From: a bacterium
GTDB lineage: Bacteria; 4484-113; JALSIF01
Assembly: GCA_026981635.1 (NCBI GenBank)
Contig: JALSIF010000014.1
Span: 1 to 6,504, forward strand
Direction of reading: 5' to 3'
Length of the DNA: 6,504 nucleotides
Part shown: positions 384 through 6,504 of the stretch, one piece after another
How positions within the stretch are numbered: the stretch's first letter is position 1
Layout of the letters: every line of letters starts with the position of its first letter
Notes under the pieces: generated by a model
Database searches by the model: none
Told to the model about the DNA's origin: nothing
The model's input: the letters and a program-made list of their open reading frames with translations, nothing else
Position numbers and translations under genes: made by a program

Positions 384-1997
384 ATGGGGTCCCCAATCAG
401 TCAGGCGCAGGAATTTATTGAGCGGAAGGTGGATAGGCTGCGCTCCCTCTCGGTGGAGCGGGCCAAGGTCTACTGGGATTTCTCCCAAACCAGCAACCCC
501 GAGCTGGTCGGGTGGCTGGCCGAGCTTTCCGACCGCATTGACCAGCTCTTCAGCGACCCGGGTGAGCTGGAAAAACTGGAGGAATACCTCGCCGATCCAG
601 CAGTCCAGGCCGACCGGATGCTCCACCGCCGCCTGAAACTGCTCAGCTACGCCTACCTTCGCCGCCGGGCCGACCGGGAGCTACTTTCCAAGGCAAACCG
701 CCTCTCGGTGGAGCTTGCCAGCCGCTACAACCGCTTCCGCCCCGAGGTGGATGGAAAGCCGGTCACCCAAAACGAGATCATGGAGGTGCTAAGAAGCTCC
801 ACCGACTCCGACCAGGTGCGCCGCTACTGGGAGGCCCAGAAGGAGGTGGGGGCCGAGGTGGCGGAGGGGATGGTGGAGCTGGTCCGCCTGCGCAACCAGA
901 TCGCAGGACAAGCGGGCTTTCCCGACTACTTCACCATGAACGTGGTCCTCTCCGAGCTTGACCCCATTAAGCTTGCCCAGACCATGGCCAAGCTTGAGGA
1001 GGGGACCCGCCCCCTCTTCGTGGAGCTAAAGGGGGAGCTAGACCGCAGGCTCTCTGAGCGCTTTGGCATCCCGGCCGAAGAGCTTCGCCCTTGGCACTAC
1101 GCCAACCCTTGGTTCCAGGATGTGCCGCCGGTCTTTGAGGTAGACCTGGACCGCCTCTTTGCCGAGGCCGACATCCCCACCATCGCCGAGCGCACCTTCG
1201 CCGACATGGAGCTGGAGATCTCCGATGTGCTTGAGCGATCCAGCTTGTATGAGCGGGAGGGGAAGGGGCCAGGGGCCTTCTGCCTGGACATTGACCGGCG
1301 GGGCGACGTGCGCATCTCCCTAAACCTCAAGCCCAACGAGCAGTGGATGAGCACCACCCTCCACGAGCTGGGCCACGCCGCCTACGACAAGTACATTGAC
1401 CCAAAGCTGCCCTGGGATCTTCGCCGCCCCGCCCACTCCAACACCACCGAGGCCATCGCCATCTATATGCAGTCCCTCACCCGCCGGGTGGACTGGCTGG
1501 CCCACTATGTGGTGGGCGAGGAGACCCCGGAGCTTCGCAGGCAGCAGCCCGAGATGGAGGCCGAGCAGCGGGCGGCAGATCTCATCTTCGTCCGCTGGGG
1601 ACAGGTGATGTACCACTTTGAAAGCAAGATGTACGCTGACCCCGAGCAGGACCTGGGTGCCCTCTGGTATGAGCAGGTGAGGAGGTTTCAGCTCCTCACC
1701 GTTGACGAGGACCGCCTGGCAAGGCCCGACTGGGCCTCCAAGCTCCACATCGTCCAGGCCCCCTGCATGTACCACAACTACTCCTACGGCCACATGATCG
1801 CCGCCCAGCTTCGCCACCACCTCATGGGCGAGCTGGGCCTGCCCAATCCCTACTGCCGCGAGGTGGGGAGCTTCCTCCGGGAGCGCTACTTTGCCCCCGG
1901 GGCAAGCCTTCGCTGGGACGAGCTGGTTGAGCAGGCCCTGGGTGAGCCGCTAAACCCCCGCCACTGGATCGCCGAGCTTGCCCCGTCGGCCGGCTAG
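384..1997 (+). CDS. M3-family (M2-like) zinc metallopeptidase, oligoendopeptidase type
   Basis: A complete 537-aa protein, predicted to hydrolyse short peptides in the cytoplasm; no signal peptide is visible. The zinc site is HELGH at residues 327-331 (His327, His331 as ligands, Glu328 as catalytic base). The third ligand is probably Glu356 in NTTEAIA, 25 residues further on, as is usual for M3/M2 gluzincins. Residues 459-471, with PCMYHNYSYGH, match the Tyr/His-rich strand that binds substrate and stabilises the transition state in these families. The N-terminal 300 residues are helix-rich and charged and would form the lid of the closed channel. The length is somewhat below classic PepF (about 600 aa), so I do not use that symbol; M2 (ACE-like) versus M3 assignment is open. 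ATG 384 is the first in-frame start after a stop, but it has no Shine-Dalgarno: the preceding 30 bases are C-rich. Translation may depend on coupling to the upstream hydrolase gene. Confidence 0.88.
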   Translation: MGSPISQAQEFIERKVDRLRSLSVERAKVYWDFSQTSNPELVGWLAELSDRIDQLFSDPGELEKLEEYLADPAVQADRMLHRRLKLLSYAYLRRRADRELLSKANRLSVELASRYNRFRPEVDGKPVTQNEIMEVLRSSTDSDQVRRYWEAQKEVGAEVAEGMVELVRLRNQIAGQAGFPDYFTMNVVLSELDPIKLAQTMAKLEEGTRPLFVELKGELDRRLSERFGIPAEELRPWHYANPWFQDVPPVFEVDLDRLFAEADIPTIAERTFADMELEISDVLERSSLYEREGKGPGAFCLDIDRRGDVRISLNLKPNEQWMSTTLHELGHAAYDKYIDPKLPWDLRRPAHSNTTEAIAIYMQSLTRRVDWLAHYVVGEETPELRRQQPEMEAEQRAADLIFVRWGQVMYHFESKMYADPEQDLGALWYEQVRRFQLLTVDEDRLARPDWASKLHIVQAPCMYHNYSYGHMIAAQLRHHLMGELGLPNPYCREVGSFLRERYFAPGASLRWDELVEQALGEPLNPRHWIAELAPSAG

Positions 1998-2000
1998 CCC

Positions 2001-2672
2001 CTAGTCCAGGAAGAAGCCGATCTCCACCGCGTAGTAGGAGGAGGCGGGGCGACTGTCCAGCACCAGGTAGCTCCCCAGCCAGCCGAACTCGGTCTCCCGG
2101 TAGAGACCGATGCCGCCGGTAAACTCCCCGAACTCCTCCTGGGTGCGCCCGTCCAGGTAGAGGTAGCTCTTCAGTCTGGGGATGTAGTGGGTAAGGCCCA
2201 CCATGGCGTTGGTCTCGCCTCCCTTGCCGAAGGTGTGGATCAGGCCCAGGTGGAGGTCGGTTCCCTGGCCGATCTGCCTTCCCCCCATCAGGTAGTACTC
2301 CGGCCTTCCTCCACCGCCGAGATTCAGCACCGCTCCGCTTATGGTCCAGCCGGCCACCCGCTGGGGGTTCACCAGCCGGGTCTTTATGCCCCAGCTTACC
2401 GAGTCGTAGTCGCCCGAGGTGCCGGCAAAGGGACCCGCCTCCAGCCAGTCGGAGAAGCCGTAGGTGAGGTCCACAAAGCTTCCGTTGAAGCCGTCCCCGG
2501 AGCCGGTCCCCTGCACATAGTCGGAAAGGAGCAGCGCCTTGGACTGGCCCACCAGGTAGGCCGAGGGGACCACATTGAGGAAGGTGACGCTGGCCCCCGC
2601 TGGCCAGGCGGAAAGGGCAATGCCCAGTGCGATGAGGACTGTGGCGCTAAGCAGGTGACGAACTGGCTTCAT
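2001..2672 (-). CDS. Secreted beta-barrel-like protein, possible outer-membrane channel
   Basis: A 223-aa protein that I do not recognise as a named family. Residues 1-27 form a clear signal peptide: MKPVRH, a hydrophobic core (LLSATVLIALGIALSA), then an AGA cleavage site before Ser28. The mature 196 residues are almost entirely alternating hydrophobic/polar stretches rich in Gly, Tyr and Trp, with short polar turns. Examples are DLTYGFSDWLEAG, SYLYLDG and SSYYAVEIGFFLD. This is the pattern of a small transmembrane beta barrel. The C terminus ends FFLD rather than in the canonical terminal Phe. The ATG directly follows the cytX stop codon, and its Shine-Dalgarno lies inside the end of cytX, so it should be translationally coupled and under the same TPP riboswitch. 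A role as outer-membrane entry port for a thiamine precursor is inferred from context only. Its stop lies 3 bp from the stop of the convergent peptidase gene. Confidence 0.8.
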   Translation of the reverse strand: MKPVRHLLSATVLIALGIALSAWPAGASVTFLNVVPSAYLVGQSKALLLSDYVQGTGSGDGFNGSFVDLTYGFSDWLEAGPFAGTSGDYDSVSWGIKTRLVNPQRVAGWTISGAVLNLGGGGRPEYYLMGGRQIGQGTDLHLGLIHTFGKGGETNAMVGLTHYIPRLKSYLYLDGRTQEEFGEFTGGIGLYRETEFGWLGSYLVLDSRPASSYYAVEIGFFLD

Positions 2673-4148
2673 TTAGGAGACCTCCATTTCGTAAGTTTCC
2701 TTTCCCCTCTTGCCCCTCCGCTCCATCAGCCTCACTAGCCCCAGGTAGACGAGGGCGGTGATGATGAAACTGGGGATGGCGCTGCCCGTCTTCCACTCCG
2801 GCCAGGCGGGCAGGCCGAGCAGGGTGTGGGCCCAGGAGGGGCTCTGGCCCCACACCGAGATGAGAAGCCCCACCACAAAGGCGATTACTGCCGCACCGCT
2901 TACCCTAGGCAGGCGGGAAAGTTCCGCGTCCCCCAGGGGAGCAAGTTTGCCCCGCCTAAGAATCAGGTAGTCGGTAAGCACCACCGCAAAGATGGGTAGG
3001 AAGACGCTGTTTATCATCAGCAGGAAGTCAAAGTAGCCCGCAAAGAGGGAGGGGGCGAACCACAGGGCAAGCACTATGCCAAGCATCCCGGCCCAGAAGG
3101 AGAGCCAGCGCTCGCTGAGCTTTGGCCAGAGGTTTAGCGAGCTTACCGCTGCCGAGTAGATGTCCAGGAAGGTGGTGGTGAGGGTGGAGATGAGCACCAG
3201 GGTCAGACCCACTACGACGATCTTCAGGGCGTGGGGGCCGCCCAGCTGCTCCAGGGAGTGGGCCACCAGCCGGGCGGGCTCAAACTCGTAGATGGGGGTG
3301 CCGGGGTTTTTAAGGGCGAAGGCTAGCCCGCCGAGCACCCCCACCACGTACATCCACACCGAGCCGGCAAAGTAGCCAAGATGCGTCCCCCAGAAGGAGG
3401 CCCGGCGGGAGCGGGCAAAGCGCCCGTAGTCGGCGGCCAGGGGGACCCAGCTGATCCCCATCGCCACCACGAAGTCAAAGTTGAGCATCAGCCCCCGATC
3501 CGCCTCCACCCTCACCTGGGCGATCTCCCCCAGCGGTACGCTCTTCAGGATGGCGTAGGTCATCACCAGGGTGACCACAAACAGCAGCGCCCCGGCGATG
3601 CGCTGGGCCCAGTGCCAGAAGCGCTCACCCCCCATCGCCCAGGCGGTGGTGAGCAGGCCGGTTAGCACCATCACCCCGGGGTCAAAGTAGCTCTCCACTC
3701 CCCCCTGGATGAGCCAGGGGGTTATCCGTTCGGCCACCTCCGGGGGCACGATAAACACCCCCAGCTCCCGGGTGGCCCGGCAGGCGATGATCAGCATGTA
3801 GCTGGTCCAGCCGATGAGCTGGAGGATGTTGGCCACCGCGGGGAGGTAGCTGCCCAGGTTGCCGAAGCTGAGGCGGGTAAGCACCATGGTGGGCTGGCCC
3901 GCCTCCTGGCCCATGCGGCTTACCGCCCCCAGGAGCAGGTTGGAGAGAAACCGCCCCACCAGGATGATGAGCACCGCCATAAAGAGTCCCGAGGAGACGA
4001 TCTGGGCACCCGACCAGATCTCGTCCACCACGATGGCGGCGCCAAACCAGAGCAGGGCAAGGTCAAGGCCGCTCAGGGTGCGGCGGTTTTCTGCCAGGGG
4101 GCGAAAGCGCGCCTCCCCCCTGGCCTCGGCTGCAGCCGCCTCTCCCAT
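2673..4148 (-). CDS. cytX: NCS1-family transporter, probable hydroxymethylpyrimidine (HMP) transporter CytX
   Basis: A 491-aa inner-membrane permease of the nucleobase:cation symporter-1 family. About 12 hydrophobic helices are visible. Family landmarks include the first helix (DLALLWFGAAIV, residues 29-40), the SWVPLAADYGRFARS loop (233-247), TTTFLDIYSAAVS (324-336) and LTDYLILRRGKL (391-402). NCS1 proteins import cytosine, purines, hydantoins or thiamine precursors. The TPP riboswitch upstream points to CytX, which takes up HMP for thiamine salvage. I chose ATG 4148 because AAGGGAGGTG (4154-4163) sits at ideal distance before it. The frame stays open for 30 more codons to 4238, but that stretch is the riboswitch leader and reads as unlikely, Arg-rich protein. 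It heads an operon with the beta-barrel gene, which begins at the base after its TAA stop. The substrate is inferred from family plus regulation, not from binding residues. Confidence 0.88.
   Translation of the reverse strand: MGEAAAAEARGEARFRPLAENRRTLSGLDLALLWFGAAIVVDEIWSGAQIVSSGLFMAVLIILVGRFLSNLLLGAVSRMGQEAGQPTMVLTRLSFGNLGSYLPAVANILQLIGWTSYMLIIACRATRELGVFIVPPEVAERITPWLIQGGVESYFDPGVMVLTGLLTTAWAMGGERFWHWAQRIAGALLFVVTLVMTYAILKSVPLGEIAQVRVEADRGLMLNFDFVVAMGISWVPLAADYGRFARSRRASFWGTHLGYFAGSVWMYVVGVLGGLAFALKNPGTPIYEFEPARLVAHSLEQLGGPHALKIVVVGLTLVLISTLTTTFLDIYSAAVSSLNLWPKLSERWLSFWAGMLGIVLALWFAPSLFAGYFDFLLMINSVFLPIFAVVLTDYLILRRGKLAPLGDAELSRLPRVSGAAVIAFVVGLLISVWGQSPSWAHTLLGLPAWPEWKTGSAIPSFIITALVYLGLVRLMERRGKRGKETYEMEVS
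2681..2685 (-). promoter_or_regulatory. Ribosome binding site of the beta-barrel gene, inside cytX
   Basis: GGAGG on the minus strand lies 8 bases before ATG 2672 and falls within the last codons of cytX. Because the cytX TAA touches the ATG, ribosomes finishing cytX can restart directly. Both genes should therefore be made together. Confidence 0.75.
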
Positions 4149-4149
4149 G

Positions 4150-4197
4150 GGTACACCTCCCTTGTGCGCCCTCAGGCGCAGGATTTGCCGGTGTACC
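4150..4197 (-). promoter_or_regulatory. Shine-Dalgarno-sequestering hairpin (probable expression platform of the TPP riboswitch)
   Basis: In the cytX leader, GGUACACC (4190-4197) is perfectly complementary to GGUGUACC (4150-4157), which contains the 3' half of the Shine-Dalgarno AAGGGAGGUG (4154-4163). Inside this stem a second perfect hairpin, UGCGCC-UGAG-GGCGCA (4165-4180), stacks just upstream of the SD, and UCC (4181-4183) can pair with GGA (4158-4160). The result hides most of the ribosome site. There is no U-tract, so control is likely translational. Pairing was found by eye; no folding energies were computed. Confidence 0.62.
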
Positions 4198-4292
4198 TGG
4201 GGAGCCTGCCGCCGTCCCCACCCCCGCCGCAGGCCCAATTTGCACCTGCACCGGGTAGGGGGAGCGGCAAAGAGAGATTCAGCGTCCTTTCG

Positions 4293-4386
4293 GGTACCTT
4301 CCCTGCGCCGGCATTACCCGGATCAGGTTCTAGGGGTCGGACGCCAAGTCCCTCTCAGCCCGCCTCCTGCGAGCTCCCCCGGTACC
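4293..4386 (-). promoter_or_regulatory. TPP riboswitch (THI element) aptamer
   Basis: The minus strand carries the conserved THI-box blocks in order. CUGAGA is at 4353-4358, ACCCC at the P2 3' side, GAACCUGAUC at 4321-4330, GGGUAAU at 4313-4319, then GCCGGCGCAGGGAAGG. P1 is formed by GGUACC at 4381-4386 with GGUACC at 4293-4298. P2 pairs the G-run after P1 with ACCCC. P3 is AGCUCGC with GCGGGCU (7 bp with one G-U). A small extra P3a-like hairpin, GGAC-UUGGC-GUCC, sits between CUGAGA and ACCCC. It binds thiamine pyrophosphate and by family precedent represses the downstream genes when TPP is high. It lies about 145 nt before the cytX start. Confidence 0.96.
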
Positions 4387-4393
4387 AGGTCCA

Positions 4394-4424
4394 ATTATAA
4401 GCACATCATCAATTGGCTAGTCAA
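4394..4424 (-). promoter_or_regulatory. Sigma70-type promoter of the riboswitch-cytX-barrel operon
   Basis: On the minus strand TTGACT (4419-4424) and a perfect TATAAT (4394-4399) are separated by 19 bases, slightly longer than ideal. Transcription would start within about 10 bases of the riboswitch P1 stem. The stretch 4149-4454 has no gene: it holds this promoter, the TPP aptamer and the leader. No intrinsic terminator with a U-tract was seen. Confidence 0.7.
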
Positions 4425-4454
4425 GAGGTAACCATTTCCCTGGTGGCGGGGAGG

Positions 4455-4934
4455 CTACTTAGGCTCCTCCGGGTCCGACCAGGGGTCCTCCTCCCAGGGC
4501 ATGGTCTCCGAGGTGATGAAGGGGTCGTGCCCCGGCTCAGCGAAGGGGTCTGCCCCCATGGCCTCGGTGAAGGGGTCGCCCCCCAGGGCCTCCTCCAACG
4601 GATCGGGGCCCATGATCTCCTCAATGGGGTCGCCAAAAAGCTCCCGCGCAATGTCCTCCCGCTCCATCTGCTCCATCAGCCGGTCGGAGGTGGTGCTCAC
4701 CTCGGGGCGGTAGAAGCGGCGAAGCTGGGGACTGGCAAACTTGAGCAGCAGGGCGGGGTTCTTGCCCGCTGAGAGGCGGTTTCCGTAGAGGTCCCAGGTG
4801 CCCTCTTCGGTGATGAGGCCGATTACCCGGCCATACATATCCATCCAGTAGCCCTCCAGCTGGTCGCGGTCCTCCATGTTGAAGGCGATGGGATACCCCG
4901 CCTCATTAACAATCTCCCCTCTGCGATTAGCCAT
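4455..4934 (-). CDS. Hypothetical protein with acidic 9-residue repeat tail
   Basis: A 159-aa protein of unknown function with no signal peptide or membrane segment. Residues 6-58 hold three short, similar beta-hairpin-like motifs with a central Gly: VNEAGYPIAF, MDMYGRVIGLI and WDLYGNRLSAG. These recall small repeat-built beta domains (beta-flower-like); this is a weak impression. Residues 70-100 look helical. From residue 101 onward the chain is a tandem repeat of the form xDPfxEamG (four to five copies), ending in a Pro/Trp/Glu-rich acidic tail. ATG 4934 is preceded by AGGAGG 10 bases upstream, which supports the start. It is divergent from csm1 and 30 bp upstream of the cytX promoter on the same strand. 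A role as CRISPR accessory is possible but unsupported; it may be an unrelated neighbour. Its GC-rich codon use resembles the genes to its left. Confidence 0.75.
   Translation of the reverse strand: MANRRGEIVNEAGYPIAFNMEDRDQLEGYWMDMYGRVIGLITEEGTWDLYGNRLSAGKNPALLLKFASPQLRRFYRPEVSTTSDRLMEQMEREDIARELFGDPIEEIMGPDPLEEALGGDPFTEAMGADPFAEPGHDPFITSETMPWEEDPWSDPEEPK
4503..4634 (-). repeat. 27-bp tandem repeat encoding the 9-residue motif xDPfxEamG
   Basis: Within the 159-aa protein, residues 101-144 read as GDPIEEIMG, PDPLEEALG, GDPFTEAMG, ADPFAEPG (one residue short) and HDPFITSET. On the plus strand the same period shows as GGGGTC-type words recurring every 27 bp, with one 24-bp unit. The copies have diverged at third positions but keep Asp-Pro and an acidic residue three to four positions on. 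This suggests selection on the protein rather than a fresh duplication. Confidence 0.8.
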
Positions 4935-5046: not shown

Positions 5047-6504
5047 ATGGAACCAAAGAATAGACCTCAACCCACTCCTGCCTATCTGGCCGCTCTTGCG
5101 GGATTCTTACATGATCTGGGAAAGGTTGGACAACGTGCCTATCCCCCCGGTATTGAGGGGGTAAGAGAAGCTTTTCCTGAGGCGGAGAGCAATTTCAGAG
5201 AGGAGAACTGGCACCTTTGGCTTAAGGACCATCATCAGTACAGAGAAGGAGAAAAGGTCACCTGGTTCTCCCACTACCACGTTCTCTGGTCTGGATACTT
5301 GGCGGAGCAGTTGGGGCTTACGGATGAGTGGAAGCCGGTTCGCCAAGCTGTATTACTGCACCACTGCCCGACCCCCAACGCCCCCCTCTCGGAGCTACTT
5401 GCCCGGGCCGACCGCCTAGCCAGCGGCATGGATCGGATCACCGTCCCGGAGAAGGGAGATGCCTGGAAAACCCCACTGATTCCCATTCTCAAGGAGGTTG
5501 GGCTTCAGGTTGAGACTGGAAATGGCTTGTCTGGAGAGGCTGGACCCGACGATGACTGCGGTTTCCCCCTGGGATATGGACTGGAACTGGCCGAGGATAA
5601 GTATCCCGCCCGTGGCTTCCCTTTCCCTCAGCCGGGGCAGTCCCTGAGTGAAAGTGAATACGAGAAACTCTGGGGAGAAATCCTTAACGTTGCAAAAGAG
5701 CTCAGGTTCGGTGGCGACCCGGATATAGCTGTTTCCCAAGTGGCTGGCCTGGTTGAGTGGTACTGCTGGCCTGTTCATGACTCCTCCTACGGAACCGTAA
5801 ACGACGTGAGTCTGGCTGATCATTCCAGGGCGGTAGCCACCGTTGCCGCCTGCCTGGCGAGGGTGGCTGAGGAGCGGACCGGTTCAAGCCAGGTTGGAGA
5901 ATGGGCGGTAACTGAACTCTTTGGGAACTACCCCAAAGAGGCAAGGAAGAGTGAACCGGAAGGGGTTGATCCCTCCTTCAAGGAGGACATCTTCAGGCTG
6001 GTAGTTGGCGATCTCAAGGGGATTCAGCGCTTCATCTACGACGTCTTTGGTGAGGGGACGGCAAAGCAGCTTAGGGCTAGGAGTTTCACCGTAGAGATCT
6101 GGTGCGATCGGCTGGCCGCCTATCTCTGCCGAGAGGTGGGGATCCCCGAAGCCTGCCGCATATATGCCACCGGCGGCAAGTTCCTCCTCCTTCTTCCCAA
6201 TCTGACGAAACTCACCTGGAAGGACAGCTCGGAAAACCGTCACCAAGGTAGCCTGACTGACTATCTTAGGTACTTCCAGGACCTGGTAAATGAGGACATA
6301 GAGCAGACCTTTGACCACCGGGTACCTTTGCGGCTGGTGCTTGCGTCGGTTCCCCTGAGCCAGCTTGACCTGATCAAGCCGGGGAAGCTTAGGGAGAAGC
6401 TTGATGAGCTGATGAAGCTTCTCAACCTGGCCTCCGGCCACCCCTACTGGGAGCTGCCGGGGGAATTTTTCTCTCCCCTGGAGCCGCCCGCTGAATACAT
6501 CTCA
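5047..6504 (+). CDS. csm1: Type III-A CRISPR effector subunit Csm1/Cas10, N-terminal part (3' end outside window)
   Basis: The frame from ATG 5047 stays open for 486 codons to the window edge. Family members are usually 750-850 aa, so roughly 60% is seen. It is the large subunit of the Csm complex, which on target-RNA binding cuts DNA through its HD domain and makes cyclic oligoadenylates through its second palm domain. The HD domain carries FLHDLGK (His22, Asp23), HH at 62-63, LLHH (His105, His106) and the Csm1-typical ADRLASGMDR (121-130). VSLADHSRAVA (254-264) follows. The first palm domain starts near residue 315 with VVGDLKGIQRFIY (319-331), LRARSF (342-347) and YATGGKFLLLLPN (373-385). 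The HD residues look intact. The GGDD cyclase motif would lie beyond the window. Early codons use AGA, GGA and GAA far more than the genes to the left. Other csm genes and an array are expected downstream; none is visible here. Confidence 0.94.
   Translation, partial: MEPKNRPQPTPAYLAALAGFLHDLGKVGQRAYPPGIEGVREAFPEAESNFREENWHLWLKDHHQYREGEKVTWFSHYHVLWSGYLAEQLGLTDEWKPVRQAVLLHHCPTPNAPLSELLARADRLASGMDRITVPEKGDAWKTPLIPILKEVGLQVETGNGLSGEAGPDDDCGFPLGYGLELAEDKYPARGFPFPQPGQSLSESEYEKLWGEILNVAKELRFGGDPDIAVSQVAGLVEWYCWPVHDSSYGTVNDVSLADHSRAVATVAACLARVAEERTGSSQVGEWAVTELFGNYPKEARKSEPEGVDPSFKEDIFRLVVGDLKGIQRFIYDVFGEGTAKQLRARSFTVEIWCDRLAAYLCREVGIPEACRIYATGGKFLLLLPNLTKLTWKDSSENRHQGSLTDYLRYFQDLVNEDIEQTFDHRVPLRLVLASVPLSQLDLIKPGKLREKLDELMKLLNLASGHPYWELPGEFFSPLEPPAEYIS

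What the first reader, a model, noticed from the sequence alone, without database searches (positions are those of the whole stretch)
2001..4424. A predicted outer-membrane barrel under TPP-riboswitch control with CytX
The sequence shows a TPP aptamer, then an NCS1 transporter, then with zero spacing a signal-peptide protein with beta-barrel pattern. CytX alone under a TPP riboswitch is known. A coupled small barrel protein of no recognised family would be a dedicated outer-membrane route for HMP or another thiamine precursor, completing a two-membrane uptake system. The function of the barrel is inference.
Basis: partly seen in the sequence, partly recalled or inferred. Interest (0 to 1): 0.68.

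Follow-up and report, generated by a model that had tools for sequence, protein, structure and literature searches.

The report
Riboswitch-controlled vitamin precursor importer plus orphan
A bacterium of the little-known group UBP7 that apparently cannot make one half of vitamin B1 carries a vitamin-sensing RNA switch in front of the importer for that half, followed directly by a gene for an exported, probably outer-membrane protein with no detectable relatives; whether that second protein helps uptake is a guess that comparative data do not support or exclude.

Summary
The anatomy is real. On the minus strand there is a TPP riboswitch (4282-4390, Rfam 74.7 bits), a CytX-type NCS1 permease (2673-4148), then a 223-aa coding gene (2001-2672) joined by TAAATG with its own GGAGG. 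It encodes a signal peptide and has outer-membrane-protein-like composition and a beta-signal-like C-terminus.

The genome belongs to the UBP7 class. All ten class genomes searched carry one TPP riboswitch. In the seven where it precedes cytX, thiC is absent; in the three with thiC, cytX is absent. The window genome has thiD, thiE and thiG. So HMP import by CytX in a thiC-less diderm is well supported.

The 223-aa protein has no homologue in 385 genomes, Pfam, NCBIfam, PHROGs, PDB or plasmids. None of the six class relatives with cytX, nor about 50 other cytX loci, has a co-transcribed barrel. The one other barrel neighbour (Andreprevotia lacus) lies behind a terminator. In relative G004 an unrelated ATPase sits 9 nt after cytX. 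Barrel fold is unproven.

Verdict: a known riboswitch-cytX unit with an orphan, probably outer-membrane, second gene of unproven role.

The parts
4282..4390 (-). TPP riboswitch aptamer (THI element)
   Evidence: Rfam RF00059, 74.7 bits, full length
4150..4197 (-). candidate expression platform: perfect 8-nt inverted repeat GGUACACC (4197-4190) / GGUGUACC (4157-4150) covering part of the cytX Shine-Dalgarno (4161-4156) just before the ATG at 4148
   Evidence: sequence and RNA folding; pairing predicted with and without the aptamer enforced, so the direction of switching is not resolved
2673..4148 (-). cytX-type NCS1 permease, 491 aa, predicted HMP importer
   Evidence: PF02133 113 bits; TIGR02358 246.7 bits, below its cut-off; 36-50% identical to the permeases after the TPP riboswitch in six class relatives
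2681..2685 (-). Shine-Dalgarno GGAGG of the 223-aa gene, inside the end of cytX
   Evidence: sequence
2001..2672 (-). 223-aa exported orphan protein, probable small outer-membrane barrel, TAAATG junction with cytX
   Evidence: coding potential, no family or homologue, outer-membrane-like composition
2592..2672 (-). signal peptide, residues 1-27, likely cleaved after AGA
   Evidence: sequence; read by eye, no dedicated predictor available
2004..2039 (-). C-terminal beta-signal-like stretch SYYAVEIGFFLD
   Evidence: pattern shared with NanC (YRIGVSFKL); 1% of shuffled mature sequences have it

Best explanation
This is a TPP-riboswitch-controlled HMP-import operon in a thiC-less UBP7 bacterium, with a second, probably co-translated gene for an orphan exported protein. 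When TPP is low, the leader allows translation of CytX, which carries HMP across the inner membrane; ThiD, ThiE and ThiG supply the next steps. The 223-aa protein follows with its own Shine-Dalgarno at a stop-start junction and is most likely made together with CytX. It is most likely a small barrel of about 10-12 strands in the outer membrane. Shown: riboswitch, permease family, junction, coding status, gene presence and absence. Inferred: HMP as substrate, direction of switching, co-transcription, outer-membrane barrel. The barrel's role in HMP passage is open: about 0.25-0.3 likely, against a passenger gene that only shares the transcript.
For: TPP aptamer 74.7 bits. CytX family. All 10 class genomes have exactly one TPP riboswitch, and 7 place it before cytX. 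ThiC is missing in exactly those 7 and present in the other 3. ThiE, ThiD and ThiG are present in the window genome. CytX in ThiC-less organisms is the published argument for HMP as substrate (PMC5874261). An Omp85 protein at 131.6 bits points to an outer membrane. TAAATG junction with GGAGG, and no promoter-like site found in 1900-4500. Composition index 18.4, against 9.7-25.3 for eight E. coli outer-membrane barrels and at most 9.5 for 23 other proteins. C-terminus like NanC's.
Against: Strand alternation is not above shuffles (z 0.2 with the scale on which known barrels score 2.0-4.9; p 0.13-0.56). AlphaFold on the single sequence gave pLDDT 31-32, which says nothing either way. The CytX score is below the curated cut-off. 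Thi gene absences come from incomplete genomes (window genome 85% complete). The cytX/thiC split follows one family of the class, so it may be a single evolutionary event.
Confidence: 0.62

Rival explanations
1. The 223-aa protein is a dedicated outer-membrane channel for HMP or a related precursor, forming a two-membrane uptake pair with CytX.
For: Zero spacing behind cytX with no promoter-like site; outer-membrane-like composition and NanC-like C-terminus; size (196 aa mature) near the 12-stranded solute channel NanC; need for HMP import; precedent of TPP-riboswitch-controlled outer-membrane uptake in Bacteroides (PMC5613172).
Against: No homologue, hence no recurrence with thiamine genes. 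None of six class relatives with the same riboswitch-cytX unit has it. None of about 50 other cytX loci has a co-transcribed barrel. HMP is small enough for general porins (established knowledge).
Confidence: 0.27
2. Passenger: the protein is a lineage-specific exported or outer-membrane protein that happens to sit behind cytX and uses its transcript, with no role in thiamine metabolism.
For: In relative G004 an AAA ATPase with no thiamine link starts 9 nt after cytX on the same strand, so tight unrelated neighbours of cytX occur in this class. The genes after cytX differ among the relatives, apart from the two genomes of one genus. In Andreprevotia lacus a COG4313 barrel stands 122 nt after a TPP-riboswitch cytX but behind an intrinsic terminator, showing that such a neighbour can arise without co-regulation.
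Against: Stop-start coupling in the window is tighter than in those cases, and no separate promoter was seen.
Confidence: 0.6
3. The protein is periplasmic or otherwise not a barrel, for example a beta-rich soluble protein.
For: Alternation test not significant; no confident model; the last residue is D, not the usual aromatic.
Against: Composition outside the range of 11 secreted and 12 cytoplasmic controls and inside that of 8 barrels; C-terminal pattern found in 1% of shuffles.
Confidence: 0.2

Closest known systems
TPP-riboswitch-cytX units (CytX/PLUTO NCS1 transporters)
   Same: TPP aptamer directly before an NCS1 permease; thiC absent; thiD, thiE and thiG present
   Different: A second, exported protein follows at zero spacing; elsewhere the next gene is thiM, thiE or thiD, or unrelated
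OMthi-PnuT system of Bacteroides (TonB-dependent receptor under a TPP riboswitch; PMC5613172)
   Same: An outer-membrane protein and an inner-membrane transporter of the thiamine pathway under TPP riboswitch control
   Different: OMthi is a TonB-dependent thiamine receptor in its own operon; here a protein of 196 aa mature length with no family, directly behind CytX
COG4313 / PF13557 12-stranded channels (Pput2725, PDB 4rl8; PMC4493636)
   Same: Small exported barrel; one member lies beside a TPP-riboswitch cytX in Andreprevotia lacus
   Different: No sequence match to the window protein (hhalign probability 0.2%; no Pfam hit); members are 270-320 aa; the Andreprevotia case is separated by a terminator
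NanC / KdgM family 12-stranded monomeric channels
   Same: Similar size, same C-terminal alternation pattern, specific-solute channel beside catabolic genes
   Different: No sequence similarity tested beyond this; resemblance of size and C-terminus only

Membership tests
TPP riboswitch (RF00059) | full-length covariance-model match above the gathering score | tested here: met
   74.7 bits against 54.3, positions 1-105 of 105
CytX (TIGR02358) | score above the curated cut-off | tested here: not met
   246.7 bits against 309.85; the six class relatives score 270-304, also below. So it is filed as a CytX-type NCS1 permease, not as a strict member
CytX (TIGR02358) | association with TPP riboswitch and absence of thiC | tested here: met
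   riboswitch about 130 nt upstream; no ThiC in the genome or in the six relatives with cytX
Outer-membrane beta-barrel | N-terminal Sec signal peptide without lipobox | tested here: met
   read from the sequence; no cysteine in the protein
Outer-membrane beta-barrel | amino-acid composition of barrels | tested here: met
   index 18.4 within the range of 8 barrels, above all 23 controls
Outer-membrane beta-barrel | alternating strand pattern above chance | tested here: inconclusive
   z 0.2 and 1.0; known barrels 2.0-4.9 on the first scale and 0.3-3.0 on the second
Outer-membrane beta-barrel | C-terminal beta-signal | tested here: inconclusive
   NanC-like pattern present, 1% of shuffles, but one residue from the end, and the pattern used misses six of seven known barrels
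Outer-membrane beta-barrel | closed barrel in a confident model | tested here: inconclusive
   pLDDT 31.4 and 32.1 from a single sequence
COG4313 / PF13557 | profile match | tested here: not met
   no Pfam hit up to E 10; hhalign probability 0.2%
Dedicated HMP outer-membrane channel | conserved pairing with cytX or thiamine genes | tested here: not met
   no other cytX locus has a co-transcribed barrel
Dedicated HMP outer-membrane channel | HMP passage or HMP-dependent growth phenotype | not testable with these tools
   needs experiment

The most novel reading that the evidence does not exclude
The 223-aa protein is a small TonB-independent outer-membrane channel dedicated to HMP, co-regulated with CytX by TPP: the first complete two-membrane HMP uptake operon and a new barrel family.
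Probability: 0.22. Interest if true: 0.6.

Novelty: new variant of a known kind. Interest (0 to 1): 0.33.

Why it matters
How HMP and other vitamin precursors cross the outer membrane of auxotrophs is largely unknown; a riboswitch-controlled barrel next to CytX would name a candidate. The firmer result is that in the UBP7 class the choice between making HMP (thiC) and importing it (cytX under the only TPP riboswitch) splits cleanly between lineages.

Tried and rejected
Homologue searches of the 223-aa protein: viral contigs, 60 and 385 genomes, 97 genomes at E 10 with the mature part, plasmids, PDB, Pfam, NCBIfam and PHROGs. All were empty or chance; the weak G174 match is a sugar-kinase-like frame, and the other weak matches are short pieces of unrelated or spurious frames. 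Single-sequence cytX scan of genome contigs found nothing; the alignment scan worked. AlphaFold was run twice, with and without the signal peptide, and was uninformative both times, so no fold search was made. The Andreprevotia COG4313 neighbour looked like a second case and was rejected because of the terminator (the simple scan missed this terminator).

Full report
WHAT IS THERE. The window is contig C14 (6504 bp) of an incomplete genome (1.75 Mb, 317 contigs, 85% complete). On the minus strand, in order, lie a TPP riboswitch at 4390-4282, an NCS1 permease at 4148-2673, and a 223-aa gene at 2672-2001. A plus-strand M2/M3-type peptidase (384-1997) converges on the end of this unit, so no further gene follows on this strand. 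Upstream of the riboswitch lie a 159-aa gene of no family (4934-4455, minus) and a divergent csm1/cas10 start (5047 onward).

RIBOSWITCH AND LEADER. The aptamer is full length. Between it and the cytX ATG there is a perfect 8-nt inverted repeat (GGUACACC...GGUGUACC) whose second arm overlaps the cytX Shine-Dalgarno. Folding predicts this hairpin with and without the aptamer enforced. It looks like a translational platform, but the folding does not show how TPP would switch it.

PERMEASE. The best curated model is CytX (TIGR02358, 246.7 bits, below the 309.85 cut-off). The permeases of the six class relatives also score below the cut-off and are 36-50% identical to this one. All ten class genomes have exactly one TPP riboswitch. 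In seven it stands before cytX. In the other three (one family) it stands before an AIR-synthase-fold protein resembling HypE and ThiL. ThiC is found only in those three and in none of the seven. ThiE, ThiD and ThiG are clearly present in the window genome. This pattern is the published argument that CytX carries HMP (PMC5874261). A caution: the three thiC genomes are one family, so this may be one evolutionary event; and absence from incomplete genomes is weaker than absence from complete ones, although six relatives agree.

THE 223-AA PROTEIN. Codon usage and codon-position GC match the neighbouring genes, in this frame only. The cytX stop and the ATG abut (TAAATG), with GGAGG 8 nt before the ATG, and no promoter-like site was found in 1900-4500; co-expression is therefore likely but not shown. 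A signal peptide is evident by eye. Against controls taken from E. coli K-12, its mature composition falls among eight known barrels and outside 23 other proteins. The last residues (YAVEIGFFL-D) follow the same alternation as NanC (YRIGVSFKL), a pattern found in 1% of shuffles. Against this, hydrophobic alternation over the whole protein is not above chance, and AlphaFold on one sequence gave pLDDT 31-32. I put an outer-membrane barrel at about 0.75-0.8.

IS IT LINKED TO THIAMINE? The direct test, recurrence of homologues near thiamine genes, could not be made because no homologue was found: not in nine class relatives, nor in 385 genomes, nor in viral contigs, plasmids, PDB, Pfam, NCBIfam or PHROGs. 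The converse test looked after cytX in other genomes. Of 66 cytX locus records with more than 400 nt downstream (duplicates included; I estimate about 55 distinct genes), only the window itself and Andreprevotia lacus L071 have an exported, barrel-composition ORF within 400 nt on the same strand. The Andreprevotia protein is a true COG4313 barrel (PF13557; solved relative 4rl8) 122 nt behind a TPP-riboswitch cytX. However, a strong hairpin with a T-run (AAACCGCACC-CUCG-GGUGCGGUUUUUU) separates the two (fold z -4.1), and its sister Andreprevotia sp. IGB-42 lacks the barrel there. So it is a neighbour, not a co-regulated partner. In class relative G004 an AAA ATPase starts 9 nt after cytX, showing that tight unrelated neighbours occur. 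Elsewhere the recurring partners look like thiM, thiE and thiD (by sequence motif).

COMPARISON. Outer-membrane proteins under TPP riboswitches are known: OMthi of Bacteroides, a TonB-dependent receptor needed with PnuT for efficient thiamine uptake (PMC5613172). The window would differ in using a small protein of no family together with CytX. Sequence membership in COG4313 was tested and not met, though with one sequence the test is weak.

VERDICT. The dedicated outer-membrane route is an untested guess that comparative evidence lowers to about one in four. Interest is modest unless family-level homologues show recurrence.

Noticed in passing
G003, G006, G009 (L025 5404-6471 minus; L026 4917-5984 plus; L027 1840-2817 plus): In the thiC-bearing family of this class the single TPP riboswitch precedes an AIR-synthase-fold protein resembling HypE and ThiL, far below both cut-offs; clear ThiG and strong ThiD matches are missing in these genomes, so their thiazole and HMP-kinase steps are unexplained.
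   Followed up: partly
window 5047-6504: Start of a type III-A csm1/cas10 gene (TIGR02578, above cut-off) divergent from the 159-aa gene; the contig ends inside it.
   Followed up: no
window 4455-4934 minus: 159-aa gene with no Pfam or NCBIfam match and an acidic, repetitive tail (DPF/DPL-type repeats), just upstream of the riboswitch.
   Followed up: no
window 384-1997 plus: Peptidase with matches to M2, M3 and M32 families, all far below the NCBIfam subfamily cut-offs; a divergent metallopeptidase.
   Followed up: no
L071 3236-5670: Andreprevotia lacus: TPP riboswitch, cytX, then a COG4313 barrel behind an intrinsic terminator; absent from the same place in Andreprevotia sp. IGB-42 (L070).
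   Followed up: yes
L020 (G004 contig C91): AAA ATPase gene starting 9 nt after a TPP-riboswitch cytX in a class relative.
   Followed up: partly
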